DNA of 38,811 bases from Taibaiella sp. (GTDB lineage: Bacteria > Bacteroidota > Bacteroidia > Chitinophagales > Chitinophagaceae): positions 1-38,811 of the forward strand of contig JAIOYR010000034.1 of the NCBI GenBank assembly GCA_021740995.1. Direction: 5' to 3'. Below, piece by piece: positions 21,724 to 36,469 of the stretch (its first letter is position 1; every line of letters begins with the position of its first letter). The notes beneath the pieces were generated by a model. It was not told where the DNA came from. It made no database searches and saw nothing but the letters and a program-made list of their open reading frames with translations. The position numbers were made by a program, and so were the translations under genes.

Positions 21724-21767
21724 CAAAAATAGATTGGCGTCATTAGAAAAATTATGACCAATGTCAT
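21724..21767 (-). promoter_or_regulatory. hemN promoter with FNR-like box
   Basis: The palindrome ATGAC-CAAT-GTCAT (21754-21767) is centred 29.5 bases upstream of TATTTTTG on the minus strand (21731-21724), a perfect TAnnTTTG. Transcription would start near 21719, putting the box about 41.5 bases upstream, the class II position for CRP/FNR activators. Confidence 0.75.
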
Positions 21768-21823
21768 TGTGTATCAGGGTACCGTATTCTATTAGTCTTT
21801 GCTGCGATAGTGCTACTCCGAAT

Positions 21824-21868
21824 CATGACCAAAGTCATGTTTATTCAATAAATATGCTCCGAACTTTG
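21824..21868 (+). promoter_or_regulatory. Promoter of the 601-residue gene with FNR-like box
   Basis: CATGAC-CAAA-GTCATG (21824-21839) is a perfect 16-bp palindrome centred 29.5 bases before GAACTTTG (21861-21868), a -7 box with one mismatch and no -33 element. Start of transcription is expected near 21873, leaving a 42-base leader. Confidence 0.72.
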
Positions 21869-21914
21869 CAGTTTATTAATGTAAAACACAGTTATCAAGA
21901 CGAGAATTAGTACG

Positions 21915-23720
21915 ATGCATACATTTCATATTCCTGTTTTAGGCCTAAGCTATTCTGTAGATACACCATTGAAAGTTGCACGCTACGGCATAGCATCGGT
22001 AGTATCTATCATAGAAGATGAGATGGTAGAGAAAATGAGAGCCTACCATTGCCTGAAAAGCGGAGAACCGTATACTGCAATTACAACAAAAGCAGATGAC
22101 TACAGGGCAAAACGAATAACCGCCTACCTGAACCTGCTGAACAAGCTGGTGCAACAACAATTGCACCAGTTAAGGAGAATGCCTTTTGAGGCAGGAAACG
22201 ATCTGGTGCGCTATTTTGAACTATTGCCGGATAATGACGAAGCGAAAACAGCATACACCGATATGCTGCAGCTTGCCGATGGGGAGGCAAAGAAGCTGCT
22301 GCAACAAGAACTGCGCACAAAAATTGTTGCAGGAGCCATTGATGTAAATATCATGGCGAAAGTGGACAATCTGAGTTTTTCCCCGGACGGAAATCCTTTG
22401 CCTGCAGAATATTCCGATGCACTATCCGCACTCAGAGGTTTTGCCAACAGTGACCTTCAATCTTCTGTAGTACTCTCTGCCGGCTACAATCCCCGACTAT
22501 ACAGCTATCTGGAAAAATTCAATGACTTTTATCCTGATAAAGCGCAACGTCTGATAAAGAAGATTATCCTAAAAGTTAGCGACTACCGCTCTGCGCTGAT
22601 ACAGGGAAAATTACTGGCAAAGAAAGGCCTATGGGTTTCTGAATTCAGAATAGAATCCGGGCTTAACTGTGGTGGGCACGCCTTTGCTACAGATGGCTAT
22701 TTGATGGGGCCCATATTGGAGGAGTTTCGGGAGAAAAGAGCCTTACTGGCAAGCGAGCTGCTGGAACTGTGTAATAAAGCCAATGAGGCAAAAGGCAATC
22801 ATACATTTACCGCAATGCCGCCGCTAAGAATAACAGTACAGGGAGGTATAGGCACAGCAAACGAAGATGAATTTCTAAGAACCTACTATGAGGTAGACGG
22901 CACAGGATGGGGAAGCCCATTCCTGCTGGTACCGGAAGCTACAAATGTAGACAACGACACGCTGCAACAACTTGCCACTGCATCTAAGGAAGATTATTAC
23001 CTGAGTCATGCATCTCCGCTGGGGGTGCCGTTTCACAACTTCAGAAAGAGCACGGCTGAACAACAGCGAAAAGACAGGATAACAAAAGGTAGACCGGGAA
23101 GCCCGTGCTATAAAAAGTTCCTCTCTACAAATACAGAATTTACCTCAACGCCTATTTGCGCTGCGTCAAGGCAATATCAGGACCTTAAGATAAAGGAACT
23201 GGCAGAGAGGAATCTTCCGGCAGACGTATATGAAGCAGAAATGCAGAGGGTTACGGAGAAGGATTGTCTATGTGAAGGTTTATCGGTATCGGCATTGTTA
23301 AAGGGCAATATCAATGTGGCACACAAGCTCACTGCTGTGACTATTTGCCCCGGCCCCAATCTTGCCTACTTCTCCGGCACGTTCACGCTACCGCAAATGG
23401 TGGGACATATTTATGGCAGAGAGCATATACTCAATTCGGTACCCCGCCCAAATATGTTCATTAATGAGCTCAATATATATGTAGACTATCTGAAAAACGA
23501 GATTGAAAAGTGCACGCAGATGCTTAGCCAAAAGCAGGAGTCTTTTTTCAACTCCTTCCGCAACAATCTACTCAATGGAATCAACTACTACAAAGCACTA
23601 CTGCCCGAACTGAAGAAGGAAACAGAAGATTACATCGACCAAATGCTGCTTCAGTTAAACAACTATCAGGAAACGCTGAACACCATGCCGATAGGGTCGA
23701 AAGCACTTGTAGCGCAATAA
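21915..23720 (+). CDS. Uncharacterised cysteine-containing protein, possibly a flavin-type TIM barrel
   Basis: A 601-residue soluble protein that I cannot assign firmly. The N-terminus (GLSYSVDTPLKVARYGIASVVS) and two internal segments, ESGLNCGGHAFATDG (~residues 249-263) and ITVQGGIGTANEDEFLR (~302-318) followed by EVDGTGWGSPFLLVPEATN, resemble the substrate and phosphate loops of nitronate-monooxygenase-like FMN barrels. Extra cysteines occur in SPCYKKF, TPICAAS, DCLCEG and TICPGPN and could hold an iron-sulfur cluster. The last ~90 residues are helical, possibly coiled coil. A flavo-iron-sulfur oxidoreductase used under low oxygen or nitrosative stress is an inference, supported by its FNR-like promoter. 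A PLP decarboxylase follows 224 bases downstream. Confidence 0.7.
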   Translation: MHTFHIPVLGLSYSVDTPLKVARYGIASVVSIIEDEMVEKMRAYHCLKSGEPYTAITTKADDYRAKRITAYLNLLNKLVQQQLHQLRRMPFEAGNDLVRYFELLPDNDEAKTAYTDMLQLADGEAKKLLQQELRTKIVAGAIDVNIMAKVDNLSFSPDGNPLPAEYSDALSALRGFANSDLQSSVVLSAGYNPRLYSYLEKFNDFYPDKAQRLIKKIILKVSDYRSALIQGKLLAKKGLWVSEFRIESGLNCGGHAFATDGYLMGPILEEFREKRALLASELLELCNKANEAKGNHTFTAMPPLRITVQGGIGTANEDEFLRTYYEVDGTGWGSPFLLVPEATNVDNDTLQQLATASKEDYYLSHASPLGVPFHNFRKSTAEQQRKDRITKGRPGSPCYKKFLSTNTEFTSTPICAASRQYQDLKIKELAERNLPADVYEAEMQRVTEKDCLCEGLSVSALLKGNINVAHKLTAVTICPGPNLAYFSGTFTLPQMVGHIYGREHILNSVPRPNMFINELNIYVDYLKNEIEKCTQMLSQKQESFFNSFRNNLLNGINYYKALLPELKKETEDYIDQMLLQLNNYQETLNTMPIGSKALVAQ

Positions 23721-23771
23721 ACTCCGTTGAAAAAGAATTGCGATAAAATAAAGCTGTAATTGTCTTGTCAC

Positions 23772-23868
23772 CACCGGTATTGCGCCAAAGCAGGCGCTGT
23801 GCCGGTGCTGTATAAAAAAACTTTCGCACCCGGTTACAAATCCAGCTGACCACAGCAAATGTAACCGG
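23772..23868 (+). promoter_or_regulatory. Structured leader with competing hairpins before the decarboxylase
   Basis: Hairpin 1 pairs ACCGG (23773-23777) and GCGCC (23782-23786) with GGCGC (23793-23797) and CCGGT (23802-23806). Hairpin 2 pairs CCGGTTACA (23830-23838) perfectly with TGTAACCGG (23860-23868). TGCCGGT (23800-23806) can instead pair with ACCGGCA (23864-23870), which would break both. No U-run follows, so any control would be translational or by processing. Confidence 0.45.
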
Positions 23869-23944
23869 CACCAGACGGTAGACGAAGTAACGCTAAAGTG
23901 AAGAGCTGTTACAAGAGCAATTTTGAAACTTAAGTTCATTTGAA

Positions 23945-25198
23945 ATGAAATACTGGAAAAAGCTATCGCACAAAGAGCAGGACAGAAGAATCACTGATGC
24001 ACTGCAAAAGAACATTAACTACAATGACAATATTCCAATTGGTGTTCCGGTTTCCAAACTGGATCCTACAGTTTTTAATGAGCATGTTTCATTTCTGAAG
24101 GAGGCACCACTGCTTAGGGCATTCATTCAAAACCCTAATCACATAGGCTGTCATACTATGGGCGAATCAGAGCCCTTCTTTGAAGGTACACAAGAGCTGG
24201 AAAAAGAAGTAATTGAGTTGCTGAGTGTGGACCTGCTGAAAGCAAAAGAAAACAGCTGCGACGGCTACATAGCTACCGGCGGCACAGAAGCAAATATTCA
24301 GGCTGCATGGATATACCGAAACTATTTTATCCAAAATTTTGATGCGGGCATAGAAGAAATAGCATTACTGAGCTCCGCAGACACACACTATTCGGTATCG
24401 AAGGCTGCCAATCTTTTGCATATCCGCTCCATAGGGGTGCCGGTTAATGACGACACAAGAATCATTGTACCAGAACTTCTGGACCGTGCCCTAGAGGATG
24501 CTATGAACGATGGGGTAAAGTACTTTATCGTATTCTCGAACATGGCTACTACCATGTTTGGCAGTGTAGATGATCCCGACCTTTTCGCTCAGCACCTTTC
24601 AAAACACGGTGCAGCATACAAAATACATGTAGATGGTGCCTATGGAGGATTTATATATCCTGTCAGTTGCACAAATAGCACTGTCAATTTCCAAAACCCC
24701 AATGTATCTTCTATAACACTGGATGCTCACAAAATGCTACAGGCGCCTTATGGAACAGGGGTATTCCTCGCCAGAAAGGGACTGATAGAATATGTATGTA
24801 CCCGGGAAGCAAAGTATGTAAGCGGAATGGATAGTACACTTTGTGGCAGTCGCTCAGGTACCAACGCTATTGCTGTGTGGATGATACTGTATACCTATGG
24901 AGCACATGGGTGGTATGAGAAAATAAGCAAATTGCAGCTTCGTACAAAATGGCTTTGTGACCGCCTTGATGCAATGAATGTTGGGTATTATCGCCACCCG
25001 GACCTCAATATCGTAACTATCCGGGCAGAATATGTACCCAATGCTATAGCTGTAAAATATGGTATGGTACCGGATACCCACACGAACAAACCCGAATGGT
25101 ACAAAATAGTGATAATGGACCATGTGGATATAGAATATCTTCAGGAATTCATAGCAGACATGAAGGTGCACCACAAAACTGAAGTGTATGCACAATAG
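23945..25198 (+). CDS. PLP-dependent amino acid decarboxylase (group II)
   Basis: A 417-residue fold-type I PLP enzyme of the glutamate/tyrosine/aspartate decarboxylase group. GYIATGGTEANIQA holds the phosphate loop, SSADTHYSVSKAA the ring-stacking His, and HVDGAYGGF the Asp that pairs with the pyridine nitrogen. TLDAHKMLQAPYGTG carries the Schiff-base Lys near residue 263. The substrate cannot be told; it is shorter than classical glutamate decarboxylases. It follows the 601-residue gene on the same strand, separated by a 224-base gap containing two hairpins, so the pair may share the FNR-like promoter. Confidence 0.85.
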   Translation: MKYWKKLSHKEQDRRITDALQKNINYNDNIPIGVPVSKLDPTVFNEHVSFLKEAPLLRAFIQNPNHIGCHTMGESEPFFEGTQELEKEVIELLSVDLLKAKENSCDGYIATGGTEANIQAAWIYRNYFIQNFDAGIEEIALLSSADTHYSVSKAANLLHIRSIGVPVNDDTRIIVPELLDRALEDAMNDGVKYFIVFSNMATTMFGSVDDPDLFAQHLSKHGAAYKIHVDGAYGGFIYPVSCTNSTVNFQNPNVSSITLDAHKMLQAPYGTGVFLARKGLIEYVCTREAKYVSGMDSTLCGSRSGTNAIAVWMILYTYGAHGWYEKISKLQLRTKWLCDRLDAMNVGYYRHPDLNIVTIRAEYVPNAIAVKYGMVPDTHTNKPEWYKIVIMDHVDIEYLQEFIADMKVHHKTEVYAQ

Positions 25199-25350
25199 TA
25201 ACGATAGCTTTTGTTTCTGCAGAGATGACGGCTACACGCAGGGGTGAGTATGCTTACGTTCAACAGGAACAGAATGGATCACCAAAGTAACCGGAACTTT
25301 ACACATAATTACGAAATAGCCGCTGATGACTGCCGTACCGGCCATGCACG

Positions 25351-25593
25351 CTATCGGTCATTCAATCCTATCCCGAACCCAAACATTGCAGCCATCACTG
25401 CGAGGTTTGATATAAGAATGATCTTTTGCACCGCAGGGCGTTCACTCCACTTTTGGTCTACATTAAACGGATCAAAAACCAGTGCTATACCCAGCGAAGC
25501 AGCAGACTGCATGTAATCCTTTTGAAAAAGTCCCTGATACAAACCAAGTGCCAGGAAACCTACGTAGAGTATTTTGTTGATTGGAGATTTCAT
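25351..25593 (-). CDS. Small membrane protein
   Basis: An 80-residue protein with two or three hydrophobic segments (near residues 7-22, 27-40 and 57-75) and the sequence MKSPINKILYVGFLALG at its start. ATG at 25593 gives a natural length; a longer frame to 25686 would run into the AraC gene. The family is unknown to me. It follows the AraC regulator gene by 61 bases on the same strand, and may be its target or operon partner. Confidence 0.6.
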   Translation of the reverse strand: MKSPINKILYVGFLALGLYQGLFQKDYMQSAASLGIALVFDPFNVDQKWSERPAVQKIILISNLAVMAAMFGFGIGLNDR

Positions 25594-25654
25594 GTCTGTT
25601 TTTTTGTACAAAAGAACACGCAATACCCGTCGCGAAATTGTACTATCAGGACAG

Positions 25655-26470
25655 CTATAAAATTTCCCAAACAATTTTATTGTCACCTAATAAACTGACT
25701 TCTTTAAAAAAAAGTTTAGGGTTCTGATTGGTAAGTTTTCTGAATTCACGGATAAAGTAAGATTGATCAGTATAGTTGTGCTCGTAGGTGATGCTGGTGA
25801 GCGATTTGATACCATCAGACTGAATTTTTGAGCGTAGCGCATTTCTGAAGCGGGCTATCCGCTTGTAGTCTGATGGAGAACAAGCCATCATTTTTGTAAA
25901 ATTTCTTTGAAATGTTTTGAAATTCATGTTCAGTTTATCCGCCACATCTGCCACACTGTAGTCATATTCGTTAGTTTCCAGCAAGGCCAGTGCCTGCTCC
26001 ATCTTTACAAACTCCTCTTTTTCTGAGTATACGGACAGCAGAAAGTCTTCGAGAAACTGTAACCTGTTCTCAGAGCTGAATAATTGGTCGCCGGCATTGA
26101 GCCAAAGTTCGCTACCAAAAGGTTGTGAATAATGGGGTGCCACCTGATTAAAATCTTCTCTTAAGAACCTATTTATACCTAATGGTTTAAAGACTATTGC
26201 CACTTCATCTATCGCCCCCTCGCAGTGTACAAAAACAGGATTGGTATATTTTCCCAAAAGTTCTATGCTGCAACTGTTTCCCATGTGCTCTCTTATTGAC
26301 AATCTATGTTCACTTCTACTTATCGATGCACTTTTGAAAAACGAGAGCCCCGTATTGGTGTGCGGAAAGGCAACATGGCTCCACCTATCAGTACTTTCGG
26401 ATCTGAAAAAATAGAAGAAGTCGACATATCGCTCAAGCGTTGCGTGTTTAGGGGCCGTTACCGTCAGCAC
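25655..26470 (-). CDS. AraC-family transcriptional regulator
   Basis: A 271-residue regulator: an N-terminal sensing domain (~1-155) with no recognised ligand signature, then a C-terminal AraC DNA-binding domain. The domain has two helix-turn-helix units, SVADVADKLNMNFKTFQRNFTK and the SITYEHNYTDQSYFIREFRK region (~225-245). It starts with GTG (26470). Targets are unknown; the small membrane protein 61 bases downstream is the nearest candidate. Confidence 0.88.
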   Translation of the reverse strand: MLTVTAPKHATLERYVDFFYFFRSESTDRWSHVAFPHTNTGLSFFKSASISRSEHRLSIREHMGNSCSIELLGKYTNPVFVHCEGAIDEVAIVFKPLGINRFLREDFNQVAPHYSQPFGSELWLNAGDQLFSSENRLQFLEDFLLSVYSEKEEFVKMEQALALLETNEYDYSVADVADKLNMNFKTFQRNFTKMMACSPSDYKRIARFRNALRSKIQSDGIKSLTSITYEHNYTDQSYFIREFRKLTNQNPKLFFKEVSLLGDNKIVWEIL

Positions 26471-26531
26471 AAACTTTATTTGCAGGTAAAGTTACTTATC
26501 ATTACCAATTTTTGGGATTTAGATGGAAGCG

Positions 26532-26581
26532 AAAAAATGAGAAAAGGTGCCATCGCTCTCGCTCTGCGCACCCTTTCTCAT
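26532..26581 (-). terminator. Terminator-like hairpin next to repeat A
   Basis: ATGAGAAAAGGTGC (26537-26550) pairs with GCACCCTTTCTCAT (26568-26581), 13 of 14 bp, with a 17-base loop. Read on the minus strand it is followed by a T run (26537-26532), as an intrinsic terminator would be; TTTT also follows on the plus strand. Confidence 0.65.
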
Positions 26582-26584
26582 TTT

Positions 26585-26629
26585 GTGGACAGCCCCGACA
26601 AATTGTCGAACCGGATGATGGATTTCTTC
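26585..26629 (+). repeat. 45-bp repeat, copy A
   Basis: Begins GTGGACAGCCCCGACAAATT and continues through TGTCGAACCGG to GATTTCTTC. It matches copy B (34380-34424) at 38 of 45 positions without gaps, in the same orientation; both sit directly beside a terminator-like hairpin. The segment CGACAAATTGTCG is itself palindromic. Confidence 0.85.
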
Positions 26630-27070
26630 CGACTGATATATAATCTACGCAGTGTTCTTTAACGATGATTAGATTGACTTAACTTTCATGAGTGATTTGA
26701 AAGATAATTCAACCACACCTTTGACCAACTCTAAAATCCTTCATTATTTAATTGTAAACTAATCTAAATCACTCGTTTCTTTAAACAACTCAACTAAATG
26801 CTGCACACACATTTCAATGAGCGGTTCATACATAAATGCATTTATGTGGATATTTTCTGGAGTCTTAGGTTAACACATGGTACAACCTAATTTCCATTGC
26901 ATCTGACTTAGCGGCCACATAAACCACTTGCATGTGTAAATTTGATCTTGATGCAACAGTTCTGTAAAAATCAAAATTGCGGGTCAATATTATCGTTCTG
27001 AATTTATCATATTATTATAAATAAACCTATTTTAATTTTAATGGCAATAAAAATGGTCGGAATATATATA

Positions 27071-27682
27071 TTAACTCAAGTTCTTTTTAATATTTATTAA
27101 TTTTACTCCTTTAATCGGTAAAATGGTGTTCTCTGTTACTCTTATGTTTGTCTCCGAATGATATTTATATCCTGCAATAATTGAAGCCCATGTTTTTGCG
27201 AATTTCTTACGCCCCAGCATACTATTCATCATTCCAAACATTCTATTTTTCATAGAGTAGTTTAAAGTAGAAGTCAGAATTGTTTTGTCTCCTTTAGCAG
27301 TAAGTCTAAAATCACCGCCCATTGTCTGAATACCTTGAACTTTATAAATACGATAAGCGTTGAATTTTTGGTAGTGCTCTGCTTCATTCCATATCAAGTT
27401 TTCTTCCTCCAATATAGCTCCTTTAAAAGCCTTTGACATTATCATATATCGTTTTGCTCCCACACCCTCATTATACGCTGTAATAACATAAGACGAATCT
27501 ACCGTTGGGCTGTTTTTGTAAATGCCTCCAACATCTTTGAAATTTGCCCATACACTTTCTATTGGAGCATCAATTTCTACCTCCATAGTGATTTCAGTTG
27601 CACTTCTTCCCAATACGGTTGTTTGTGCGGTTGCTGAATTTATTACAAATAATCCAATGAAAATAATTAGTATGTACTTCAT
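27071..27682 (-). CDS. SRPBCC-family protein with signal peptide
   Basis: A 203-residue protein with an N-terminal signal peptide (MKYILIIFIGLFVINSATAQ) followed by a START/Bet v1-like SRPBCC domain, a fold that encloses hydrophobic ligands. EVEIDAPIESVWANFKDVGGIYKNSP is the typical opening of the domain. YSMKNRMFGMMNSML and IIAGYKYHSET align with YSMKNGFFDVMNTLM and IMAGHKLYIET of the upstream gene, so the two are paralogues, one exported and one cytosolic. It follows that gene by 4 bases. The ligand is unknown. Confidence 0.8.
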   Translation of the reverse strand: MKYILIIFIGLFVINSATAQTTVLGRSATEITMEVEIDAPIESVWANFKDVGGIYKNSPTVDSSYVITAYNEGVGAKRYMIMSKAFKGAILEEENLIWNEAEHYQKFNAYRIYKVQGIQTMGGDFRLTAKGDKTILTSTLNYSMKNRMFGMMNSMLGRKKFAKTWASIIAGYKYHSETNIRVTENTILPIKGVKLINIKKNLS

Positions 27683-27686
27683 TTAT

Positions 27687-28199
27687 CTAATTTAATTGTT
27701 TAACAATTGATGTGTCTAATTTGGTTTTTTCGTTTACAATGGCTCCTGTTTCAATATAAAGTTTATGTCCAGCCATTATACCATCTAATAGTTTCGAATT
27801 CATGTTTTTCATCATGAGAGTGTTCATTACATCGAAAAATCCATTTTTCATAGAGTATGCCATAGTACCTGTCAGGGTAGTTTTTTCTCCTTGTCTTCCT
27901 ATAGCTAAATCCAATGCCATTGTATCAATACCTGGCATTTTTTTCAGTTCTTGTACTTCTATTTTGATGTTTTTGCCATCGTTCCATTCCGTTACTTTTT
28001 CTTCGGCACTTGCACCCATCATCGTAAAATCACAATGTCGGGTTGCACCAACTCCTTCTTTTTGTGTAGAAGTAATAAATGATTTACTTACCGCAGGATG
28101 TCCGTGGCAAATGTTACCAAAGTCTGCTAATGCTTTCCAAACTTTGTCTTTTGATTGATTGATTTCAACCTCTCTTTTAATTGTTGTTATTTTTCCCAT
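27687..28199 (-). CDS. SRPBCC-family protein, cytosolic
   Basis: A 170-residue Bet v1-like ligand-binding protein without a signal peptide. The opening REVEINQSKDKVWKALADFGNICHGHP and the later KEGVGATRHCDFTMMG are typical SRPBCC features. It starts 2 bases after the tetR gene and ends 4 bases before its exported paralogue, so the three genes form one operon. A role in binding or converting a hydrophobic compound that also acts as TetR effector is a reasonable inference. Confidence 0.8.
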   Translation of the reverse strand: MGKITTIKREVEINQSKDKVWKALADFGNICHGHPAVSKSFITSTQKEGVGATRHCDFTMMGASAEEKVTEWNDGKNIKIEVQELKKMPGIDTMALDLAIGRQGEKTTLTGTMAYSMKNGFFDVMNTLMMKNMNSKLLDGIMAGHKLYIETGAIVNEKTKLDTSIVKQLN

Positions 28200-28201
28200 T
28201 T

Positions 28202-28789
28202 TTATTTATTTGTTTTTAAATTATTGAATAAAAGTTTCATTGTCGTAAATCCCTTTTTGTTGCTATTGAGACTCTTTGCTCTAGTCAACACACCGTAAAA
28301 TGTAGAATGAAGAAGTGTTGCAATTTCTTTCGAGTCGTAGTTAGGATTTAAGTCTCCTTCTTTTTGTGCCCGTTTAACACAAGGTTCAACTGCATTTATG
28401 ATTTTTTCAAATCCCTTACTTGTTACAGTAGCAATGTTTTCATTTATTGCCCCAAGTTCAGACATCATGTTATTAACCATACAACCCATGTAATTCATTT
28501 GAGGTTGCATTTTGAGCATAACTGAATAAAATTCCTCAAGTTGGTCAATCGCTCTGTCTTTATTATTTGGAGAGAGGATATTGATTATCCTTTCAGTATT
28601 TGACTTGTCAAAACTTTCTAGTGTAGCAAGTAAATAATTCTCTTTATTTTCAAAAGCATTATAAAACGCACCTTTTGTCATGCCAGTAGCTTTGCATATT
28701 TCGTCAAGTCCTACATTCCCGTAGCCCTTTGAACAAAAGAGGGTTAACCCGATTTGTATAACTTTTTCTTTGTCGTGTTTAATATTCAC
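28202..28789 (-). CDS. TetR/AcrR-family transcriptional regulator
   Basis: A 195-residue regulator with the helix-turn-helix GLDEICKATGMTKGAFYNAFENKENYL near residues 27-53 and an all-helical effector domain. It starts with GTG, since no ATG precedes the DNA-binding domain. A 32-bp inverted repeat 22 bases upstream (28811-28842) is the likely operator, implying autoregulation of the tetR-SRPBCC-SRPBCC operon. The -7 box TATATTTG ends only 4 bases before the GTG. Confidence 0.88.
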   Translation of the reverse strand: MNIKHDKEKVIQIGLTLFCSKGYGNVGLDEICKATGMTKGAFYNAFENKENYLLATLESFDKSNTERIINILSPNNKDRAIDQLEEFYSVMLKMQPQMNYMGCMVNNMMSELGAINENIATVTSKGFEKIINAVEPCVKRAQKEGDLNPNYDSKEIATLLHSTFYGVLTRAKSLNSNKKGFTTMKLLFNNLKTNK

Positions 28790-28793
28790 GATG

Positions 28794-28801
28794 CAAATAT
28801 A
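28794..28801 (-). promoter_or_regulatory. -7 box of the tetR-SRPBCC operon
   Basis: TATATTTG on the minus strand (28801-28794) matches TAnnTTTG and is separated by only 4 bases from the GTG start at 28789, implying a leaderless or nearly leaderless transcript. No good -33 TTTG lies at the normal distance; the operator occupies that region. Confidence 0.5.
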
Positions 28802-28810
28802 GTAAAAATA

Positions 28811-28842
28811 ATTTCAAATAGACTAATCGGTCTGTTTGAAAT
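28811..28842. promoter_or_regulatory. 32-bp inverted repeat, TetR operator candidate
   Basis: ATTTCAAATAGAC (28811-28823), spacer TAATCG, GTCTGTTTGAAAT (28830-28842): the arms match at 12 of 13 positions. The core AGAC-N6-GTCT is of TetR-operator type. It overlaps the -33 zone of the tetR promoter. Confidence 0.7.
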
Positions 28843-29074
28843 CATAAAATTAGAAATGATTATTAAAATGATTTTAATTGGTGAGAGTTTTTAGAATTTA
28901 ATAGTCGGTTCGACTTTCCTATGAAGATAAAAAACAAAACCATTGCAGTGCAAGGGTTTTGTAAGAAGTGGAAAAGGGCGGGAATATGTCGAACTTTTTT
29001 GTTGAGGATTTGGAGAGATTTCAGGTTAATATGGGCAAATTTTAACAGCTTGATAGCATCGGTGGAATAACTCA

Positions 29075-29082
29075 TATTTTTG
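29075..29082 (+). promoter_or_regulatory. -7 box of the primase-helicase gene
   Basis: TATTTTTG matches TAnnTTTG and ends 4 bases before GTG 29087. No clear -33 TTTG is present at the usual distance. Confidence 0.45.
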
Positions 29083-29086
29083 CTTG

Positions 29087-32000
29087 GTGGACAGTAATGG
29101 CTTCAATATTAATTTGTTTAATGCTCTATTCCGGGGTAGGGATGACGTATTTGCAAAACGGTGGGAGACCAAAGATAAGAGCGGGTATGCTCCTGCCTAT
29201 GATATTGATTGGAATCAATACTCACTTCACAAAGCATCCGGCGGTACTTTAAAGGATTATCCACATAAAAGCTATTCTAAACTTACAGATGCTGCAATTA
29301 TTGCACATTTGGAAGGCAGCGATGTTGTCGGTATTTATCCGCTTTTAGAAAACGACACTTCATGGTTTCTCGCTGTTGATTTTGATGAAAACAACTGGAG
29401 AACGGAAATCATTAAGTTATTTGAGTATTGTCGTCAACATCAATTGCCCTCATATATTGAACGGTCACGTTCGGGCAATGGTGGTCATTTATGGATATTC
29501 TTTGAAGAGCCCTACCCTGCAATAAAAAGCAGGGCTATTATCAAGGATTTTCTAAAATGTGCAGGGATTGCTATCAAGGCATCAAACAGTACCAGCTTTG
29601 ACCGGATATTTCCTAACCAGGATCAGCACACAGGGAAAGGGTTAGGTAATCTAATTGCCCTGCCGTTTCAAAAGGCCGCTATGGAAAATGGTAATTGCTG
29701 CTTTATTGACCCTCATACTTTTGAACCATATCCTGACCAATTGGGGTTTCTCGCCTCAATACAGAAAGTAGCTACTTCAATATTTGATAAGCTATATACC
29801 GGATTAAATCAAAGCCCTCGTATTGTTGATAAAATCCAAGAACGATTAAAAACAACAAGAGCCGGTATTCAAATATTTTTAGACAACAAAATCACGATAA
29901 GCCGGGATAATCTACCGTCAGAAGTTGTGTTGTTTTTAAGAGAGCATCTCAAAGCAAACAACCCGATTTTTTTCATTAGGAAAGCTACCGGTCAAAACAC
30001 TCATGGCATAGCATCATCTGCTACATTGCTTGAAGAACAAACCGACCGGATAATGTTACCCAGAGGATATATTGGTGCGTTACTCCGGTATTGTAAAGCA
30101 CATAAGCTGGAGTACCAGTTAACCGATCAAAGAACAAAGCTGCCAGAAGTTGACTATGAGCAAAAAGGCCAGCTATACGATTTCCAACAACCAGCCCTTG
30201 CCATAGCCGACAAGAAAGAAATGGGCGTTATTGTAGCACCTCCCGGTTCCGGTAAAACCATTGTTGGACTTTCTATCATAGTGCAAAAGAAACAACCGGC
30301 CCTAATCATTGTTCATCGCAGGCAGTTACTTGATCAATGGATACAGCGGATACAATCATTCTTAGGCATACTGAAATATAAGATTGGCAGAATTACAAAA
30401 GGTCAGGTGGACATTGGTGAACATATAACGGTAGCCATGATTCAAAGTCTTGGTAATGCTGAAGTAGCAAATAAAATAGAAAAGGCTTTCGGCACTATAA
30501 TCATAGATGAGTGCCATCATTTGCCGTCCGATACATACAAGGCTGTTCTGCAACAGTTACACACTTATTACCTGTATGGACTAACAGCTACGCCAATAAG
30601 GAAAAACAAGGATGAGAAAATGATTTTCGCCCAGATCGGCGAAGTGATCCATGAGATAGCCGTTCCCAAACATCACGATAATAATAAGGGCTTGTTCATC
30701 AATATCAGTGATACGGATTTAGATATCCCCTTCAATGCAGCCACTGATAATTTTGAAACGCTCTCAGATATACTTGTCCATGATACCGCCCGAAATGCCT
30801 TGATTGCAGATGATATTAGAACCGAAATAAATAACGGCAAAAGTATCATGGTGCTTACTGAAAGAAAAGCGCATATAGAAATACTGAATCATTTCTTAAA
30901 GCAGGATTGCGAAACCATTACTTTATCTGGCGATGATACTGAAGTAGCAAGGAAAGCAAAAATGAGGCAAATAGAAGATGGTCGTTTCCAGGTATTAATC
31001 ACTACCGGACAGTTTATGGGTGAGGGAATTGATATAGGTGCGCTTGATTGTTTATTTCTGGTTTATCCCTGTTCATTTGAAGGTAAGCTGGTACAGTATA
31101 TCGTCAGGGTGCAGCGAAGTGAGAATGTTCCTGCTATTTATGATTACAGGGACTTGAATATTCCTCATTTGGAAAAAATGTTTCAGAAAAGGAATAAGCA
31201 CTACAATAAGCTGGCTAATTCCGGCATAATAAAAACACACGAAGAATACCTTTTGAGGTTTGAGGAAGACAGATTTTATGTCGGCAGCCAGGCAAACGCT
31301 TATCCAATTTCTGTTCTTGAATTGGGGATGAATATTGATTGCTTTCAAAAAGGAATAGTATGGAAAATCAGGGTATTAAAATACAAGGAAGATGAATGCA
31401 GCATTTTTGCTGAAATTCTCAATTATAATGTAATAATACAGGAAGACATTCAACAGCTTTCATTGTCGTTGCTACCCATTGAGCAAATAAGATTCAGAAC
31501 AATTGATACGGGCGGTATTCTAAAATCTGTAGTTCTGAAAAGAACAGTGGTCACCACGCCCGCTGTCTCGGTATCACTTCCTCCTGTTCCATCAATAGTT
31601 CAATCGTGGGTATTTGAAAAGATCATAAAAATACCGTTTAAAAAAATCTGTTTTGGAAACGGATGTGTTACTATCCCTTTTTATTTATCGGCAATCGGGA
31701 AAGATATTACCATAGAAATACCCAACGATAATGCCAGACCGGAGTTTGAGGCTATTAAGGAATATTTCTCGAAAATCCTGAGAACAAAATCCATTACGGT
31801 AAACATCAGGATAAAGCATGATAAGCAGAACGCTCTTTCTTATGAAGCGAGTTCCGATGAGGTAAATGCAATAAACGGGGAGATCATTGATTCCGTAAGG
31901 TTTGAATTTGTAAGACGGGATTTCAAGAAATTTAAGGGTGATGGAAATGCTAAATCAATCTTGTCCTTTGATGATTTAAAACAGTCGAATCAAAGCATTG

Positions 32001-32422
32001 GCGCATTATTGGAAAATGAAGCTGCGTTGCTCAACGAGGTATTAAAAATGGAATTAGCAAAGCACTTTCTCCAGATCAAATATTTAGCATCAAAGCATGA
32101 AGCCTCAGTTTTAAAACTTCGATTTATTCTACAACCCTTCTCTTTCATTTTCCTGATTGCAGGAGAAAATAAATATCACTTGATCTGGGAAACCCTTGAT
32201 AGTGAAGAAGCAACCTATCTATGGCATATAGCTAAGGATAAAGTTGCGTTACGGGCTGTAATTAAAGAAATAGAAACAAGCCTTAATGAAATGAAACTAA
32301 CAGGCAGGAATTCCTATATCAAAAAAGCACCGGATTATTTTAGCCGGATTATTCACGACTATTCCGATACGAAAAAGGGGTTTGTTGAATGGAAGGGTGT
32401 ATTGGAAGAAAGGCTTATATAG
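29087..32422 (+). CDS. TOTE-type primase-helicase (AEP domain plus SF2 helicase)
   Basis: An 1111-residue protein. Residues ~5-235 match the archaeo-eukaryotic primase domain of TOTE conflict systems: NALFRGRDDVFAKRW, GIYPLLENDTSWFLAVDFD, ERSRSGNGGHLWIFF and RIFPNQDQ. Residues ~355-700 are a superfamily 2 helicase with APPGSGKT, IIIDECHH, GLTATP, TTGQFMGEGIDIG and QYIVRVQR. Homologues I recall have CxKP...KCxxC zinc cysteines between the RGR and YPLL motifs; here the segment is DWNQYSLHKASGGTLKDY, without cysteine. The last ~330 residues match nothing I know. Start is GTG 29087 or TTG 29084; no ATG is available. Presumed role: defence or conflict with mobile DNA. Confidence 0.85.
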   Translation: MDSNGFNINLFNALFRGRDDVFAKRWETKDKSGYAPAYDIDWNQYSLHKASGGTLKDYPHKSYSKLTDAAIIAHLEGSDVVGIYPLLENDTSWFLAVDFDENNWRTEIIKLFEYCRQHQLPSYIERSRSGNGGHLWIFFEEPYPAIKSRAIIKDFLKCAGIAIKASNSTSFDRIFPNQDQHTGKGLGNLIALPFQKAAMENGNCCFIDPHTFEPYPDQLGFLASIQKVATSIFDKLYTGLNQSPRIVDKIQERLKTTRAGIQIFLDNKITISRDNLPSEVVLFLREHLKANNPIFFIRKATGQNTHGIASSATLLEEQTDRIMLPRGYIGALLRYCKAHKLEYQLTDQRTKLPEVDYEQKGQLYDFQQPALAIADKKEMGVIVAPPGSGKTIVGLSIIVQKKQPALIIVHRRQLLDQWIQRIQSFLGILKYKIGRITKGQVDIGEHITVAMIQSLGNAEVANKIEKAFGTIIIDECHHLPSDTYKAVLQQLHTYYLYGLTATPIRKNKDEKMIFAQIGEVIHEIAVPKHHDNNKGLFINISDTDLDIPFNAATDNFETLSDILVHDTARNALIADDIRTEINNGKSIMVLTERKAHIEILNHFLKQDCETITLSGDDTEVARKAKMRQIEDGRFQVLITTGQFMGEGIDIGALDCLFLVYPCSFEGKLVQYIVRVQRSENVPAIYDYRDLNIPHLEKMFQKRNKHYNKLANSGIIKTHEEYLLRFEEDRFYVGSQANAYPISVLELGMNIDCFQKGIVWKIRVLKYKEDECSIFAEILNYNVIIQEDIQQLSLSLLPIEQIRFRTIDTGGILKSVVLKRTVVTTPAVSVSLPPVPSIVQSWVFEKIIKIPFKKICFGNGCVTIPFYLSAIGKDITIEIPNDNARPEFEAIKEYFSKILRTKSITVNIRIKHDKQNALSYEASSDEVNAINGEIIDSVRFEFVRRDFKKFKGDGNAKSILSFDDLKQSNQSIGALLENEAALLNEVLKMELAKHFLQIKYLASKHEASVLKLRFILQPFSFIFLIAGENKYHLIWETLDSEEATYLWHIAKDKVALRAVIKEIETSLNEMKLTGRNSYIKKAPDYFSRIIHDYSDTKKGFVEWKGVLEERLI

Positions 32423-32623
32423 CATTTTTGTGCGAAAACGTCCCTAATTTACAGTTTTTATCAATGTTTCTACTCAGAGCAATTCCTTTGGTTTTTGAAC
32501 AACTTTTAAACAACCACCCTATTTTTTCACAACATTTTAGTGTAAAAAAGCATTGATAATCAATTTGTTACCTATCTTTTGAACTGATTTTTATACACCG
32601 CACAGTCAAAAGTGGCTATTATT

Positions 32624-34267
32624 TCACGTTATTTTGTTTATAAAATACCGGGTAGCCTTTCTTTCTCCGGTCACCCCCAATGTATTATCCTCAACCATAC
32701 TATATAGCTGAGATTTTATCTTCCTGATCGGGATTTCAATACCCACCCTTTGGTGAATATCGCTAACCGAACTATTCGGGTAAACCTTCAAATCCTGAAA
32801 TATCAGTTCCTTTAATCTATGGTCTTCGATTTTCTTAAGGTTCGTTTTGCCTTTAAAATCCGCTTTTCTTAAAAAGTCGGGGTTTAGGTAATATTCTACG
32901 CCCTTTGTCTTCCCCTTGGTTTTCACTAAGCCGAGGTCTATTAACCTGCCCAACCAATCTCTTATTGCATTCGGCTGTTTTAAACTCAGGTTTTTCGAAA
33001 ATTCTATAGCCGACAACGTGGTATGTTGCGCAATTAACCCGAGGCAAATAATTTCTTTCTGGCGAAGCTGGAACTCTTCATTTGCCCGGCTCACCAACTT
33101 GATCACTTCATCCTTAGTAATTCTTTTCCTTATCGTAACGGTTACCCTGTCGTCTCCTTCGGTTACAACCGGTAATTGCTTACCGTTTGAAAGCAGTACC
33201 TCGTACATTTTATCATAGCCGGTGCCTTCACGCTCCATTAGCTTCAGGTCGTAAAATACTTTAGCCAGATGCTCATTACGCCTAACCGTTTTGTGCAGCA
33301 TATTTTCAGGCGTTACTCCCGTGGGTAGCAGGCCGGGATTGTGCATCTCAATTCGGTCGGTATAAAGGTTGATGAAAATATCTCCTCTGGTGGTATATGG
33401 CCGATGCACTAAAGCATTGGCGAGAAGCTCTCGTATTATCTCCTCCTCATAGTTAGGTATGAACTTCCTGAATATGCCATCCGATACTTCTATGCCTTCT
33501 TTCCAGTCCGGTATCTGTGTCCATACGGCTTCTATCATTTCTTTGGGGTTCAGGGAGAAGTCATCCCACACTATTTTGTTTACCCTGCTGCCGCTCTCAT
33601 CATACTTGAAAAACTGGATTACAGTGGCATACAGCAATTTTGCCCGGTCAGTTCGCTTGCCTACCCATAATACACCAAGATTGGTAAGAGAATCTCCTTC
33701 TACCATCAGGTAATAATCAAGTAGTTCATCTGCCGACTTTTCTTTTACGAATGCGGTAACCCTTTCCGATGCCCGAATATCAGCAACAAATTGCTGCATT
33801 TTTTCAGGGTCAACCTCTGTTCTGCGCACGTTGCGTACCAGCTTTGTTTCCCAGATAAACGCAGGCTTGTCGGTAAGTAATCGCATCAGGTCTTCAGGCG
33901 GCAATGGCGTACACTTATCAGATACCCGGTAATAATACCTGCCATCAGTAGTGCTGGCAATCGTGGATAGGCTCTGCATCACTTTTAGTTCTATATACTG
34001 CCCTGCATTTTCTCCGGTTATTATCTCCGCATGGGTAGCCACGTTCACTGTAAGTTCTGAAATTCTTTTTCTTATTTTAGCAGGTAGAGTATTATCAATT
34101 TTTTGACCTACTGGAGCTCCCTTATCATCATCCTCAATGCCGATATAAATTACCCCGCCCCTTGCATTAGCAAAGCATACACAGTCCTTAGCCAACTCAT
34201 TCCAGTCGGCAGAATTGCCGGTTACAATTCTCAATGATTTCTTTTCTATGTGTTGTGTTTCTTCCAT
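32624..34267 (-). CDS. AlbA_2/Schlafen-type ATP-binding protein
   Basis: A 547-residue protein with an N-terminal AlbA_2 (Schlafen) domain, containing LAKDCVCFANARGGVIYIGIEDD, and a GHKL-type ATPase domain around residues 280-375, with RELLANALVHRPY, MHNPGLLPTGVTPENM and EREGTGYDKM. Winged-helix segments follow (about 405-460 and 490-547). Proteins of this type act as transcription regulators or in defence and mobile-element loci; the biochemical role here is unknown. ATG at 34267 is preferred to a TTG at 34276; TATTTTTG on the minus strand (34288-34281) is a likely -7 box. It is convergent with the primase-helicase gene across a 201-base gap. Confidence 0.85.
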   Translation of the reverse strand: MEETQHIEKKSLRIVTGNSADWNELAKDCVCFANARGGVIYIGIEDDDKGAPVGQKIDNTLPAKIRKRISELTVNVATHAEIITGENAGQYIELKVMQSLSTIASTTDGRYYYRVSDKCTPLPPEDLMRLLTDKPAFIWETKLVRNVRRTEVDPEKMQQFVADIRASERVTAFVKEKSADELLDYYLMVEGDSLTNLGVLWVGKRTDRAKLLYATVIQFFKYDESGSRVNKIVWDDFSLNPKEMIEAVWTQIPDWKEGIEVSDGIFRKFIPNYEEEIIRELLANALVHRPYTTRGDIFINLYTDRIEMHNPGLLPTGVTPENMLHKTVRRNEHLAKVFYDLKLMEREGTGYDKMYEVLLSNGKQLPVVTEGDDRVTVTIRKRITKDEVIKLVSRANEEFQLRQKEIICLGLIAQHTTLSAIEFSKNLSLKQPNAIRDWLGRLIDLGLVKTKGKTKGVEYYLNPDFLRKADFKGKTNLKKIEDHRLKELIFQDLKVYPNSSVSDIHQRVGIEIPIRKIKSQLYSMVEDNTLGVTGERKATRYFINKIT

Positions 34268-34341
34268 TCCCTGCAAAAATCAAAAATAAACAAAACACTG
34301 TCTATGTAGTGTACTATTTTAAATGAGCTATTAAGAAGAAT

Positions 34342-34376
34342 AAAAAACCGGGAACATCAGTTCGATGTTCCCGGTT
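34342..34376 (-). terminator. Rho-independent terminator next to repeat B
   Basis: AACCGGGAACATC (34346-34358) pairs perfectly over 13 bp with GATGTTCCCGGTT (34364-34376), loop 5 bases. On the minus strand it is followed by a run of T (34347-34342), terminating the RIC-hemerythrin transcript. Confidence 0.9.
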
Positions 34377-34379
34377 GAA

Positions 34380-34424
34380 GTGGACTCCCCGAACGAATTG
34401 TCGAACCGGTTGATGGATTTTTTC
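34380..34424 (+). repeat. 45-bp repeat, copy B
   Basis: Begins GTGGACTCCCCGAACGAATT, then TGTCGAACCGG and GATTTTTTC. Direct copy of 26585-26629 with 7 mismatches in 45 positions, again immediately right of a terminator hairpin whose own sequence is unrelated to that beside copy A. Confidence 0.85.
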
Positions 34425-34474
34425 AGGAAAATATTCTCATTAAGATCTAAATATGGAATATAACCTGTTAAAGC

Positions 34475-34965
34475 CTAGTGGTTGTCTTTTACCCAAAAAT
34501 GATCTGTCCATTTATGATCTGCGACGCGGCTATTCACGTTTAGCTTGAAACCAATTTCAGCCAATAAGTCATTCGGAATTGGGTTCTGTATATAGTTGAA
34601 TAGTTCGCGTTCATCGAACCGAATATGCAATTCCAGCAGCTTAACAAATTGTTCGCATAACGCCTGGTTTGAATGGCTCTCTCTTATCGATTCCGCCAGG
34701 TTCCTGATCACGCCATGCTCTGACTCAGCCCTGACCCTGAGTGGATGTCGACCTTGAGCAGCGGAAACAAATAACGCTCCTCATCCCTGAAATGTGGCTC
34801 AAGCTCCTGCCTTATAAAAAAAAGAACATAACTGCATATTCGTTTCGGATGAATTTTATTCGTGATTCCGTACCCGATCTTCCACACAAGCTGTAGGCCT
34901 GAATGGTGATCTCTGGAAAGTGTAACTATTGCCGGGTCTCTTTTTATTGGGGTATGTTCATTCAC
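34475..34965 (-). pseudogene. Hemerythrin-like protein, frame broken
   Basis: Two abutting frames (34708-34965, 85 residues; 34475-34711, 78 residues from GTG) make one four-helix hemerythrin. The first carries SRDHHSGLQL and EPHFRDEERYLFPLL. The second carries LHIRFDERELFNYIQ. Between them the second frame, read upstream of its GTG, gives PLRVRAESEHGVIRNLAESI, the missing third helix; so the frames join if one base is restored near 34745-34750 (D-H-P-L). A GTGA stop/start overlap could allow coupled halves instead. The first frame overlaps the RIC gene by 8 bases. A complete protein would bind a di-iron site and possibly NO or oxygen. Confidence 0.8.
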
Positions 34966-35704
34966 GTGTCAGTGTTTCTTCAAGTTTCATTGCTTTTGGG
35001 AACAGGATATTGTTCTCAAGATGTATATGCAGGAACAGATCATCCTGAAATTCCTTCAACTTTCTGTAAGCCACCACATAAGTAGTGCAGCCATCGGGCG
35101 GCGTGGTGAAATTGTTGCTCAATTCTGCTATTCTGAAAAAGCGCTCGCCCTCTGTCACATGCTCATCTTCCATCATGCCTATCGGGTTTGATAATGCCCC
35201 AAAGAAGAAAGGTTTGATGTTATTTGCTCCTTGCCTGACTGCCGCAGCCAGCTTCTTAATAGCAGGAAACAGCACTGTTTCCTCTTTCACCATGTGCTGA
35301 GCCAATTCATGTGCGCACCCTTCAAATAGCGCGAATATCTCTGTCAGTTCGGGATGCTTTGCCCCGTGTACGCTGTTTATTTTGTGCAGGTAGCTCAAAA
35401 GGATCTGGATATTGTCCCTGACATACTTGTGGTGTACCTGTTCTATGTGTGTTGCGAGTTCATCGAGTTGCATGGATCGATACATGTCTTCTTCGATTGG
35501 AATTGTATTTTCCATCTTCTCCATCACCTCTTGCATTATAGCCGAAAAATCAAGATTATTTTCCTTGCAAACATCTTCAAGACGCCTGCCGCCTTTACAA
35601 CAAAAGTCAATACCATACCTCTTAAAGACATCGGCAGCCCTGTAATTTGCGGCAACAATACTTCCTACTGTAATTCCTGTTTCGGTTGCAGTTTCTATGT
35701 TCAT
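34958..35704 (-). CDS. Iron-sulfur cluster repair di-iron protein (RIC/YtfE/ScdA)
   Basis: A 248-residue cytosolic protein that repairs iron-sulfur clusters damaged by nitric oxide or oxidants. Residues ~8-60 are the ScdA_N domain with the vicinal cysteines YGIDFCCKGGRRL (Cys35, Cys36). Residues ~75-240 are a hemerythrin-like di-iron four-helix bundle with His and Glu ligands in THIEQVHHKYV, HELAQHMVKEETVLFP, MMEDEHVTEGERF and HIHLENNILFPKA. It overlaps the hemerythrin start by 8 bases. A degraded FNR-like box precedes it (35760-35773). Confidence 0.92.
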   Translation of the reverse strand: MNIETATETGITVGSIVAANYRAADVFKRYGIDFCCKGGRRLEDVCKENNLDFSAIMQEVMEKMENTIPIEEDMYRSMQLDELATHIEQVHHKYVRDNIQILLSYLHKINSVHGAKHPELTEIFALFEGCAHELAQHMVKEETVLFPAIKKLAAAVRQGANNIKPFFFGALSNPIGMMEDEHVTEGERFFRIAELSNNFTTPPDGCTTYVVAYRKLKEFQDDLFLHIHLENNILFPKAMKLEETLTRE

Positions 35705-35729
35705 CGCTTAGTTATTTATTGGTTCATTG

Positions 35730-35773
35730 CAAAATAACGCCGACTTCTTTGTATGAAATATGTGTAGGCTCAT
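35730..35773 (-). promoter_or_regulatory. RIC promoter with degraded FNR-like box
   Basis: ATGTG-TAGG-CTCAT (35760-35773) keeps 7 of 10 positions of ATGAC-N4-GTCAT. Its centre (35766.5) is exactly 29.5 bases before the first base of TTATTTTG on the minus strand (35737-35730), the spacing seen at the three perfect boxes. Transcription would start near 35725. Confidence 0.5.
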
Positions 35774-35821
35774 ATTCCATAGCAAAAAACAAATCCTATT
35801 GATTTTTAGATGAATTTTCAA

Positions 35822-35867
35822 TTATGACCAGAGTCATAAATCGCTGATCTACAACATGGTACTTTTA
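35822..35867 (+). promoter_or_regulatory. Fasciclin-gene promoter with FNR-like box
   Basis: TTATGAC-CAGA-GTCATAA (35822-35839) is a perfect 18-bp palindrome, centred 29.5 bases before TACTTTTA (35860-35867), a -7 box with one mismatch. Transcription is expected from about 35872, leaving a leader of about 31 bases. Confidence 0.75.
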
Positions 35868-35902
35868 TGTTGTACACTATTATTAACACTTCAATTCCTT
35901 TT

Positions 35903-36469
35903 ATGAAAAAAATTACAGTTCCGCTCATGTTTGCTTTTTGCGTCTTGTCAGCAGCTTGCGGTAATGAAACCACAACTAGTGAAGGAACAACAGGCACTGA
36001 GGCAACGCAAGAAACTGCAACAGGCCAATCGGGCGTACAGGATGATGCCTCGCAAAAGAATGTTGTTCAGATCGCTGTCGGAAGCAAAGATCATACTACT
36101 TTGGTAGCCGCAGTTAAGGCTGCTGAGTTGGTCGATGTTCTAAGCAACACTGGGCCATTTACTGTTTTTGCACCAACAAATGCCGCATTTGACCTACTAC
36201 CAGCAGGAACAGTTGATGGACTCTTGAAACCCGAAAAGAAAGAAGACCTGGCGGATATACTTCAGTATCACGTGTCAGTAGGGGTATATAAGGAAGAACA
36301 GCTACAGGACGGACAGTCTTTGGGTCAAGTAAATGGTAGCAACATTACTATTTCAAAAAAGGACGGGAAGACAATCATAAATGGTAATGCTACAATAGTA
36401 GCATCAATACCTGCTTCAAACGGTATTATTCATGTTATTGACGGCGTATTGCTTCCGCCCAAAAAATAA
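35903..36469 (+). CDS. Fasciclin-domain lipoprotein
   Basis: A 188-residue lipoprotein: signal peptide MKKITVPLMFAFCVLSAAC with lipidated Cys19, a Thr/Glu-rich linker (~20-55), then one FAS1 (fasciclin) domain. The H1 region reads TLVAAVKAAELVDVLSNTGPFTVFAPTNAAF with the hallmark TVFAPTN, and the H2-like end reads NGIIHVIDGVLLPP. FAS1 proteins act at the cell surface or in the periplasm, often in adhesion. In denitrifying and microaerobic bacteria they recur beside nos and cytochrome genes for unknown reasons. ATG 35903 begins the signal peptide. Promoter has an FNR-like box. Confidence 0.9.
   Translation: MKKITVPLMFAFCVLSAACGNETTTSEGTTGTEATQETATGQSGVQDDASQKNVVQIAVGSKDHTTLVAAVKAAELVDVLSNTGPFTVFAPTNAAFDLLPAGTVDGLLKPEKKEDLADILQYHVSVGVYKEEQLQDGQSLGQVNGSNITISKKDGKTIINGNATIVASIPASNGIIHVIDGVLLPPKK

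What the first reader, a model, noticed from the sequence alone, without database searches (positions are those of the whole stretch)
21724..35867. FNR/DNR-like boxes at a fixed distance from the -7 box of four genes
ATGAC-N4-GTCAT palindromes precede hemN (21754-21767), the 601-residue gene (21824-21839) and the fasciclin gene (35822-35839). In every case the palindrome centre is exactly 29.5 bases from the first base of the -7 box, on either strand. A degraded box (35760-35773) keeps the same spacing in front of the RIC gene. The -7 boxes at three of the four are imperfect and -33 elements are missing, as expected for activator-dependent promoters. The fixed geometry implies a class II CRP/FNR-type activator, sensing oxygen or NO.
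Basis: partly seen in the sequence, partly recalled or inferred. Interest (0 to 1): 0.75.

Follow-up and report, generated by a model that had tools for sequence, protein, structure and literature searches.

The report
Low-oxygen switch boxes at fixed distance
Four gene promoters in this Bacteroidota genome carry an activator-binding box at one exact distance from the start signal, and the same box at the same distance recurs at cytochrome oxidase, heme and stress genes of related bacteria, which points to a widespread low-oxygen switch probably run by an unusual two-component regulator.

Summary
Three perfect boxes (ATGAC-N4-GTCAT) and one asymmetric box lie exactly 29.5 bases from the first base of a -7 box. 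Genome-wide, 13 of 24 TGAY-N4-RTCA + TAnnTTTG pairs use this one spacing of 30 allowed; six genus genomes give 56 of 114. Orthologous promoters keep it: hemN 11 of 13 in the genus, fasciclin 7 of 8 (one at +1), RIC 8 of 8, the 601-residue gene 8 of 16. So the 'degraded' RIC box is a conserved asymmetric site. With -7 boxes at -12 to -5 (PMC9723704), the centre lies at -41.5, the class II position. The half-site prefers A or C first (70 of 86), not the T of TTGAT. Best regulator: a receiver-CRP fusion beside the cbb3 oxidase genes, paired with a kinase whose first PAS domain resembles FixL. It occurs in 53 of 99 genomes of the class; those average more boxed promoters. Some genomes without it carry cysteine-type homologues with the same recognition helix. 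A second box 22 bp upstream is common, at nine of nine genus ccoN promoters in view. Signal, binding and direction of control are inferred, not shown.

The parts
21754..21767 (-). class II activator box of hemN, ATGACATTGGTCAT
   Evidence: same spacing in 11 of 13 genus hemN promoters
21724..21731 (-). -7 box TATTTTTG of hemN; predicted transcription start 21719
   Evidence: start inferred from the -12 to -5 placement in PMC9723704
20338..21705 (-). hemN, oxygen-independent coproporphyrinogen III oxidase; likely start GTG 21705 rather than TTG 21726
   Evidence: TIGR00538 435 bits, cut-off 325; start inferred from promoter position and paralogue
21824..21839 (+). class II activator box of the 601-residue gene (CATGACCAAAGTCATG)
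   Evidence: 8 of 16 anchored promoters of this gene family have a box at the same spacing
21861..21868 (+). -7 box GAACTTTG; G in place of T is kept (GANNTTTG) in 8 of 8 boxed promoters of this gene family
21915..23720 (+). 601-residue protein of unknown function, present in part of the genus; no Pfam or NCBIfam match
35822..35839 (+). class II activator box of the fasciclin-domain gene
   Evidence: 7 of 8 genus loci at the same spacing, 1 at one base more; fasciclin orthologue found in all 8
35860..35867 (+). -7 box TACTTTTA of the fasciclin gene; predicted transcription start 35872
35903..36469 (+). fasciclin-domain protein, likely start ATG 35903 (lipoprotein-like signal MKKITVPLMFAFCVLSAACG)
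   Evidence: PF02469; start inferred
35760..35773 (-). asymmetric box of RIC, ATGAGCCTACACAT; distal half-site ATGA, proximal half without the consensus T
   Evidence: 8 of 8 genus loci with the same spacing (three of the eight nearly identical)
35730..35737 (-). -7 box TTATTTTG of RIC; predicted transcription start 35725
34958..35704 (-). RIC/YtfE-type di-iron iron-sulfur repair protein
   Evidence: TIGR03652 225 bits, cut-off 204.7; PF04405, PF01814

Best explanation
The boxes are operators of a CRP/FNR-superfamily activator that works at class II promoters: a dimer centred at -41.5 touches RNA polymerase bound through a weak -7 box without a -33 element. The regulator is most likely the receiver-CRP fusion protein encoded beside the cbb3 oxidase genes (contig C82), switched on by phosphoryl transfer from its operon partner, a PAS histidine kinase whose first PAS domain resembles FixL. 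Low oxygen, or a related redox or NO signal, would activate the kinase. The phosphorylated fusion would bind [A/C]TGA[C/T]-N4-[A/G]TCA[G/T] and switch on cbb3 oxidase, a metal ATPase, hemN, RIC, the fasciclin lipoprotein and further genes, in many genomes its own operon. Many promoters carry a second box exactly 22 bp upstream (-63.5), so two dimers probably bind side by side on one face of the helix. Shown here by computation: spacing, conservation, tandem phasing, presence and neighbourhood of the regulator. Inferred: binding, phosphorylation, signal, direction of control.
For: Spacing peak in own genome (13 of 24) and six genus genomes (56 of 114). Orthologous promoters keep it. In 23 loci around the fusion gene and the C114 island, own and related, 22 of 26 perfect pairs are at this spacing; in 24 loci of other Bacteroidota with the fusion gene, 17 of 38. 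56 control loci give 0 at this spacing in 848 kb, though 48 of them are from other phyla with other promoters, so the control is weak. Fusion architecture: Response_reg, cNMP_binding, HTH_Crp_2. Neighbours ccoNO, ccoG and kinase. The kinase-fusion operon has a box at the spacing in 7 of 16 genus loci. Tandem offset 22 bp: 51 of 71 close pairs in genus and order loci, 18 of 42 in named loci, nine of nine genus ccoN promoters in view. Of 98 other genomes of the class, the 52 with the fusion average 4.9 such promoters, the 46 without 2.0 (Mann-Whitney P 2e-6; per Mb P 1e-4). Recognition helix GTATESLIR lacks the CRP Arg180, and G comes first in 8 of 86 genus half-sites and 3 of 106 in named loci, in line with the Arg180-G3 correlation of PMC1274295. 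The other three CRP/FNR proteins over Pfam's cut-off in this genome have that Arg. PAS1 is closest to FixL among solved structures (E 3e-12); the His200-equivalent is kept in 28 of 28 kinases where the motif was found (9 of 37 had no match to it).
Against: No experiment. A cysteine-type FNR-like protein is also encoded here, beside nirK and probable nor genes; its own gene and hemN2 carry the box at the spacing, and it may bind others. More distant cysteine-type homologues occur in some genus genomes, e.g. G008 at 34%. 33 of the 46 class genomes without the fusion have at least one such promoter and 11 have 4 to 7; 2 of 52 with it have none. Nothing was corrected for phylogeny. Control loci also show some 22-bp pairs (8 of 42). 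The FixL oxygen-contact Arg is Met in this genome's kinase and Arg in 7 of 28 by my reading. Two of 13 genus hemN promoters and all three order-level ones lack the box; half of the anchored 601-family promoters lack it. The ccoN proximal box starts with T and departs from the core (TTGAG).
Confidence: 0.7

Rival explanations
1. The boxes in this window are run by the cysteine-type FNR-like protein of the denitrification island (contig C114), which would sense oxygen or NO through an iron-sulfur cluster; the receiver-CRP fusion is not involved.
For: Protein has CxxCxxC near its start plus two further Cys. It sits beside nirK (TIGR02376, 373 bits, cut-off 296), a heme-copper oxidase-family protein and a c-type cytochrome that are probable norB and norC, and a second hemN; boxes at the spacing precede it and hemN2.
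Against: A close orthologue is in only 2 of the 19 genus genomes searched, this one included, yet the boxes are conserved in genus genomes without it. Its helix has the Arg that goes with G at the first half-site position, which the window boxes lack.
Confidence: 0.17
2. Both regulators read the same boxes: a core low-oxygen regulator plus an acquired FNR that extends control to denitrification.
For: Both kinds of protein are present. Of the 11 fusion-free class genomes with 4 or more boxed promoters, 10 encode a homologue of the CRP part at E 1e-24 or better; of 7 (of 13) fusion-free genomes with none that I searched, 6 have no match. Nine of those 10 homologues have CxxC ahead of the matched part and in six the helix could be read as GTATE[ST]xIR.
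Against: No direct evidence of shared binding; this genome's FNR has the helix GTSRETVTR, not GTATE.
Confidence: 0.3
3. The spacing is a by-product of Bacteroidota promoter composition, not an operator.
For: The -7 box is common; exact boxes are not over-represented in number, and the 3-mismatch count does not exceed its reversed control.
Against: Single-base spacing peak, conservation at orthologous promoters, and 22-bp tandem phasing.
Confidence: 0.02

Closest known systems
Class II CRP/FNR-dependent promoters (E. coli)
   Same: Activator centred at -41.5, weak or missing upstream promoter element
   Different: Here the polymerase element is the Bacteroidota -7 box TAnnTTTG and the half-site is mostly [A/C]TGA[C/T]. 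E. coli geometry is recalled, not tested
FixL-FixJ-FixK cascade of rhizobia
   Same: FixL-like PAS kinase, receiver domain, CRP/FNR output, cbb3 oxidase and heme genes as targets
   Different: Receiver and CRP/FNR output are in one protein; no separate FixJ and FixK step
FNR/ANR/DNR (TTGAT-N4-ATCAA)
   Same: Same palindrome layout (5-N4-5) and similar targets
   Different: First half-site base mostly A or C; the fusion protein has no FNR-type cysteines
HcpR of delta-proteobacteria (TTGAC-N4-GTCAA, PMC1274295)
   Same: TGAC-N4-GTCA core
   Different: Outer base and target genes differ; the HcpR2 motif given for most HcpR2 genomes, Bacteroides among them, is GTAAC-N4-GTTAC

Membership tests
CRP/FNR superfamily regulator (fusion protein, C82) | cNMP_binding fold plus Crp-type HTH | tested here: met
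   PF00027 76 bits and PF13545 52.5 bits, both over cut-off; many CRP structures match profile positions about 146-350
CRP/FNR superfamily regulator (fusion protein, C82) | cAMP binding | not tested
   -
Response regulator | receiver domain with phospho-acceptor Asp | tested here: met
   PF00072 105 bits; D52 invariant in 21 sequences
FNR subfamily (fusion protein) | iron-sulfur cysteines | tested here: not met
   No cysteine among the invariant columns of 21 fusion proteins; the only nearly invariant one, C51, is next to the receiver's D52
FNR subfamily (C114 protein) | N-terminal cysteines plus one near residue 112 | tested here: inconclusive
   C9, C12, C15, C103, C114 present, but C-x2-C-x2-C differs from the recalled E. 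coli pattern; NCBIfam Fnr model 72 bits, cut-off 228
FixL | heme-binding PAS: proximal His and distal Arg | tested here: inconclusive
   His equivalent in 28 of 28 kinases with the motif (37 examined); distal Arg is Met in this genome, Arg in 7 of 28 by my reading
Class II activator site | centre at -41.5 from the transcription start | tested here: inconclusive
   Fixed 29.5 bases to the -7 box; start sites not mapped here, placed through passages of PMC9723704
DNR/NnrR NO regulator | TTGAT or TTGCG half-site | tested here: not met
   First base of 86 genus half-sites: A 46, C 24, G 8, T 8
DNR/NnrR NO regulator | NO sensing | not testable with these tools
   -

The most novel reading that the evidence does not exclude
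Bacteroidota have a widespread low-oxygen regulon with one conserved box and one DNA-reading head mounted on two different sensors: in some lineages an iron-sulfur FNR, in others a FixL-like kinase feeding a receiver fused to the FNR-type output. Sensors were swapped while box, spacing and targets stayed, and paired dimers 22 bp apart (-41.5 and -63.5) form the strong version of the promoter.
Probability: 0.42. Interest if true: 0.75.

Novelty: new variant of a known kind. Interest (0 to 1): 0.62.

Why it matters
Bacteroidota are abundant in soils, waters and guts (general knowledge), yet my ten paper searches returned no account of this box or this regulator. A box, an exact spacing and a candidate two-component pair make the question directly testable with one deletion and one RNA-seq. 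The fusion would be a FixL-FixJ-FixK cascade shortened to two proteins, and a natural case of sensor exchange on a conserved regulon.

Tried and rejected
Plain box count as proof: rejected, exact boxes are not in excess and the 3-mismatch pattern does not exceed its reversed control. 'Degraded RIC box': rejected, conserved. DNR/NnrR and HcpR as source of the motif: half-site differs. C28:39094 HTH hit as a CRP: it is an ArsR-like protein with a short, below-cut-off match. My first half-site count (36 hand-picked sites, no T first) left out the ccoN proximal boxes, which start with T, and mixed in sites at other spacings; I replaced it by an automatic count and lowered confidence from 0.72 to 0.70. 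On reading again the helix is known for six of ten homologues only; I lowered the novel case from 0.45 to 0.42. Structure of the 601-residue protein: tool switched off, function left open. Prior-art searches that returned no description of this box or regulator: (most subscription papers are not held). Papers: PMC1274295, PMC13370916, PMC8510549, PMC4558063, PMC4999443 and PMC9723704 seen as passages (of the last also the outline with abstract); all others as search listings only.
Full report
Observation. The genome is a 3.91 Mb draft in 151 contigs; the window is contig C115. Exact ATGACN4GTCAT occurs 6 times, 3 of them here. That the organism is a Bacteroidota follows from its nearest named relatives and its -7 boxes; the tools gave no name.

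Chance. The number of exact boxes is not in excess (6, against 8 for the reversed control), and with three mismatches allowed box plus -7 box is below its reversed control (63 against 86). The excess is in the geometry. In six genus genomes 56 of 114 listed matches are at this spacing, 12 and 12 at one base less and more, and 9 at eleven bases more.

Conservation. hemN: 11 of 13 genus genes (own paralogue included) have box plus -7 box within one mismatch at this spacing, with spacings 10-35 scanned; the only hit at another spacing is a second -7 match behind the same G005 box. G013, G012 and three order-level hemN have none. RIC-fasciclin interval: eight genus loci, all with a fasciclin orthologue (71-100% identity). 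The fasciclin box is at the spacing in seven and one base longer in G003. The RIC box, ATGA-N7-CA[T/C], is at the spacing in eight of eight; three are nearly identical. 601 gene family: 8 of 16 anchored promoters, each with GANNTTTG as -7 box.

Position. In Flavobacterium psychrophilum the TAnnTTTG box lies at -12 to -5 from mapped starts (PMC9723704, passages). That places the box centre at -41.5, the class II position of CRP/FNR activators (established knowledge). The same paper reports strong induction of cbb3 oxidase, and induction of heme synthesis enzymes, under oxygen limitation, in line with the targets here.

Regulon. In this genome the box at the spacing precedes, among others, ccoNO, the metal ATPase operon, a conserved 127-residue gene, the kinase-fusion operon, hemN and hemN2, the FNR-like gene, a PAS kinase, a Usp-family gene, a fatty acid desaturase and a PhyH-family gene; it also precedes genes with no evident link, such as an EGF-like lipoprotein, a surface-repeat-like protein and a carbohydrate-binding protein, some of which may be chance. 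The 127-residue gene has the box in eight of eight loci in view (seven at the spacing, one a base shorter). Ten boxed genes of named Bacteroidota loci, chosen by me, include five Usp proteins, one S30AE ribosome hibernation-type protein, pyruvate phosphate dikinase, a BON protein and a P-type cation ATPase; one had no family.

Regulator. Five Crp-type HTH matches exist in this genome, four over the cut-off: the C114 cysteine-type FNR-like protein, the C82 receiver-CRP fusion and two short CRP-like proteins; the fifth is ArsR-like. The fusion has Response_reg, cNMP_binding and HTH_Crp_2 domains and a strongly conserved recognition helix GTATESLIRTL. Its operon partner is a PAS histidine kinase whose first PAS domain is closest to FixL among solved structures (E 3e-12). 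The pair lies next to ccoNO, ccoG and fixH-like genes in this genome and in 8 of the other genus loci fetched (G002, G004, G007, G009, G010, G011, G013, G014), and in one of the two G016 loci. Fusion orthologues occur in named Dyadobacter, Jiulongibacter, Flavobacterium, Winogradskyella, Aquimarina, Aequorivita, Maribacter and Sphingobacterium records (best 80 of a capped list) and in 53 of 99 genomes of the class, own included. Genomes with the fusion have more boxed promoters. In 24 fusion-bearing loci outside the genus 17 of 38 perfect pairs are at the spacing and 9 at 44 bases. Of 56 other loci of the same scan, 8 titled as Bacteroidota groups, none has a pair at the spacing; three pairs occur at other spacings.

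Tandem boxes. The 44-base class is mostly a second box 22 bp upstream of the first. Offsets of exactly 22 bp make up 51 of 71 close pairs in genus and order loci, 18 of 42 in named loci and 8 of 42 in the control loci. Nine of nine ccoN promoters in view in the genus, own included, have the pair; the proximal one is the imperfect TTGAG-N4-GTCAT. No second box 22 bp upstream is seen at the window's own promoters (by eye).

Sensor exchange. All 11 fusion-free class genomes with 4 or more boxed promoters were searched: 10 encode a homologue of the CRP part at E 1e-24 or better, G078 only a weak one. Of 7 (of 13) fusion-free genomes with none, 6 have no match. Nine of the ten best homologues have CxxC ahead of the matched part (all but G049). 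The helix could be read in six (G031, G111, G033, G049, G091, G061) and is GTATE[ST]xIR in each; in the other four my pattern missed it. On a tree of 77 CRP parts the cysteine-type and receiver-type proteins lie on two sides of one branch (support 97/100), with eight unlabelled proteins split between the sides and four label changes in all; long branches are flagged. The root is by midpoint, so the direction of exchange is unknown.

Which regulator? Arg180 of CRP goes with G at the third consensus position (PMC1274295, passages), which corresponds to the first half-site base here by my alignment. The fusion lacks that Arg. First bases of 86 half-sites from 43 genus sites (own and G010 left out) are A 46, C 24, G 8, T 8; of 106 in named loci A 59, C 34, T 10, G 3. 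The other three regulators have the Arg. A close orthologue of the C114 protein occurs in 2 of 19 genus genomes, so it cannot explain conservation across the genus; more distant relatives exist in some (G008), and sites may be shared.

What is not shown. No binding, phosphorylation, expression or start site was measured for this organism. Related genomes are not independent. The genome is a draft with 4.6% estimated contamination, and some paralogue contigs could be strain variants.

Noticed in passing
21915-25198 and contigs C114, C103: The 601-residue gene (invariant Cys and CGG motifs, no family match) has two further copies in this draft, both reaching a contig end; the C114 copy lies near hemN2 and decarboxylase fragments.
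   Followed up: partly
35600-36469 and L047 8900-9538 (C151): A second RIC-fasciclin locus: fasciclin 97% identical to the window's over 143 residues, RIC only 70% identical, contig ends inside fasciclin. Mosaic paralogue or strain variant.
   Followed up: partly
L044 4736-11728 (C114): Denitrification island: nirK with a cytochrome c domain, probable norB and norC, FNR-like gene. GTGATGTAAATCAC in the divergent interval has no -7 box at the usual spacing.
   Followed up: partly
genus genomes: A smaller second spacing peak 11 bases (about one helical turn) further out: 9 of 114 matches. Unexplained.
   Followed up: no
29084-32422: Large protein with TOTE conflict-system primase and helicase domains, a candidate defence element.
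   Followed up: no
L042 11582-11965: Conserved 127-residue protein without Pfam match, boxed in eight of eight loci in view: a candidate core member of the regulon.
   Followed up: partly
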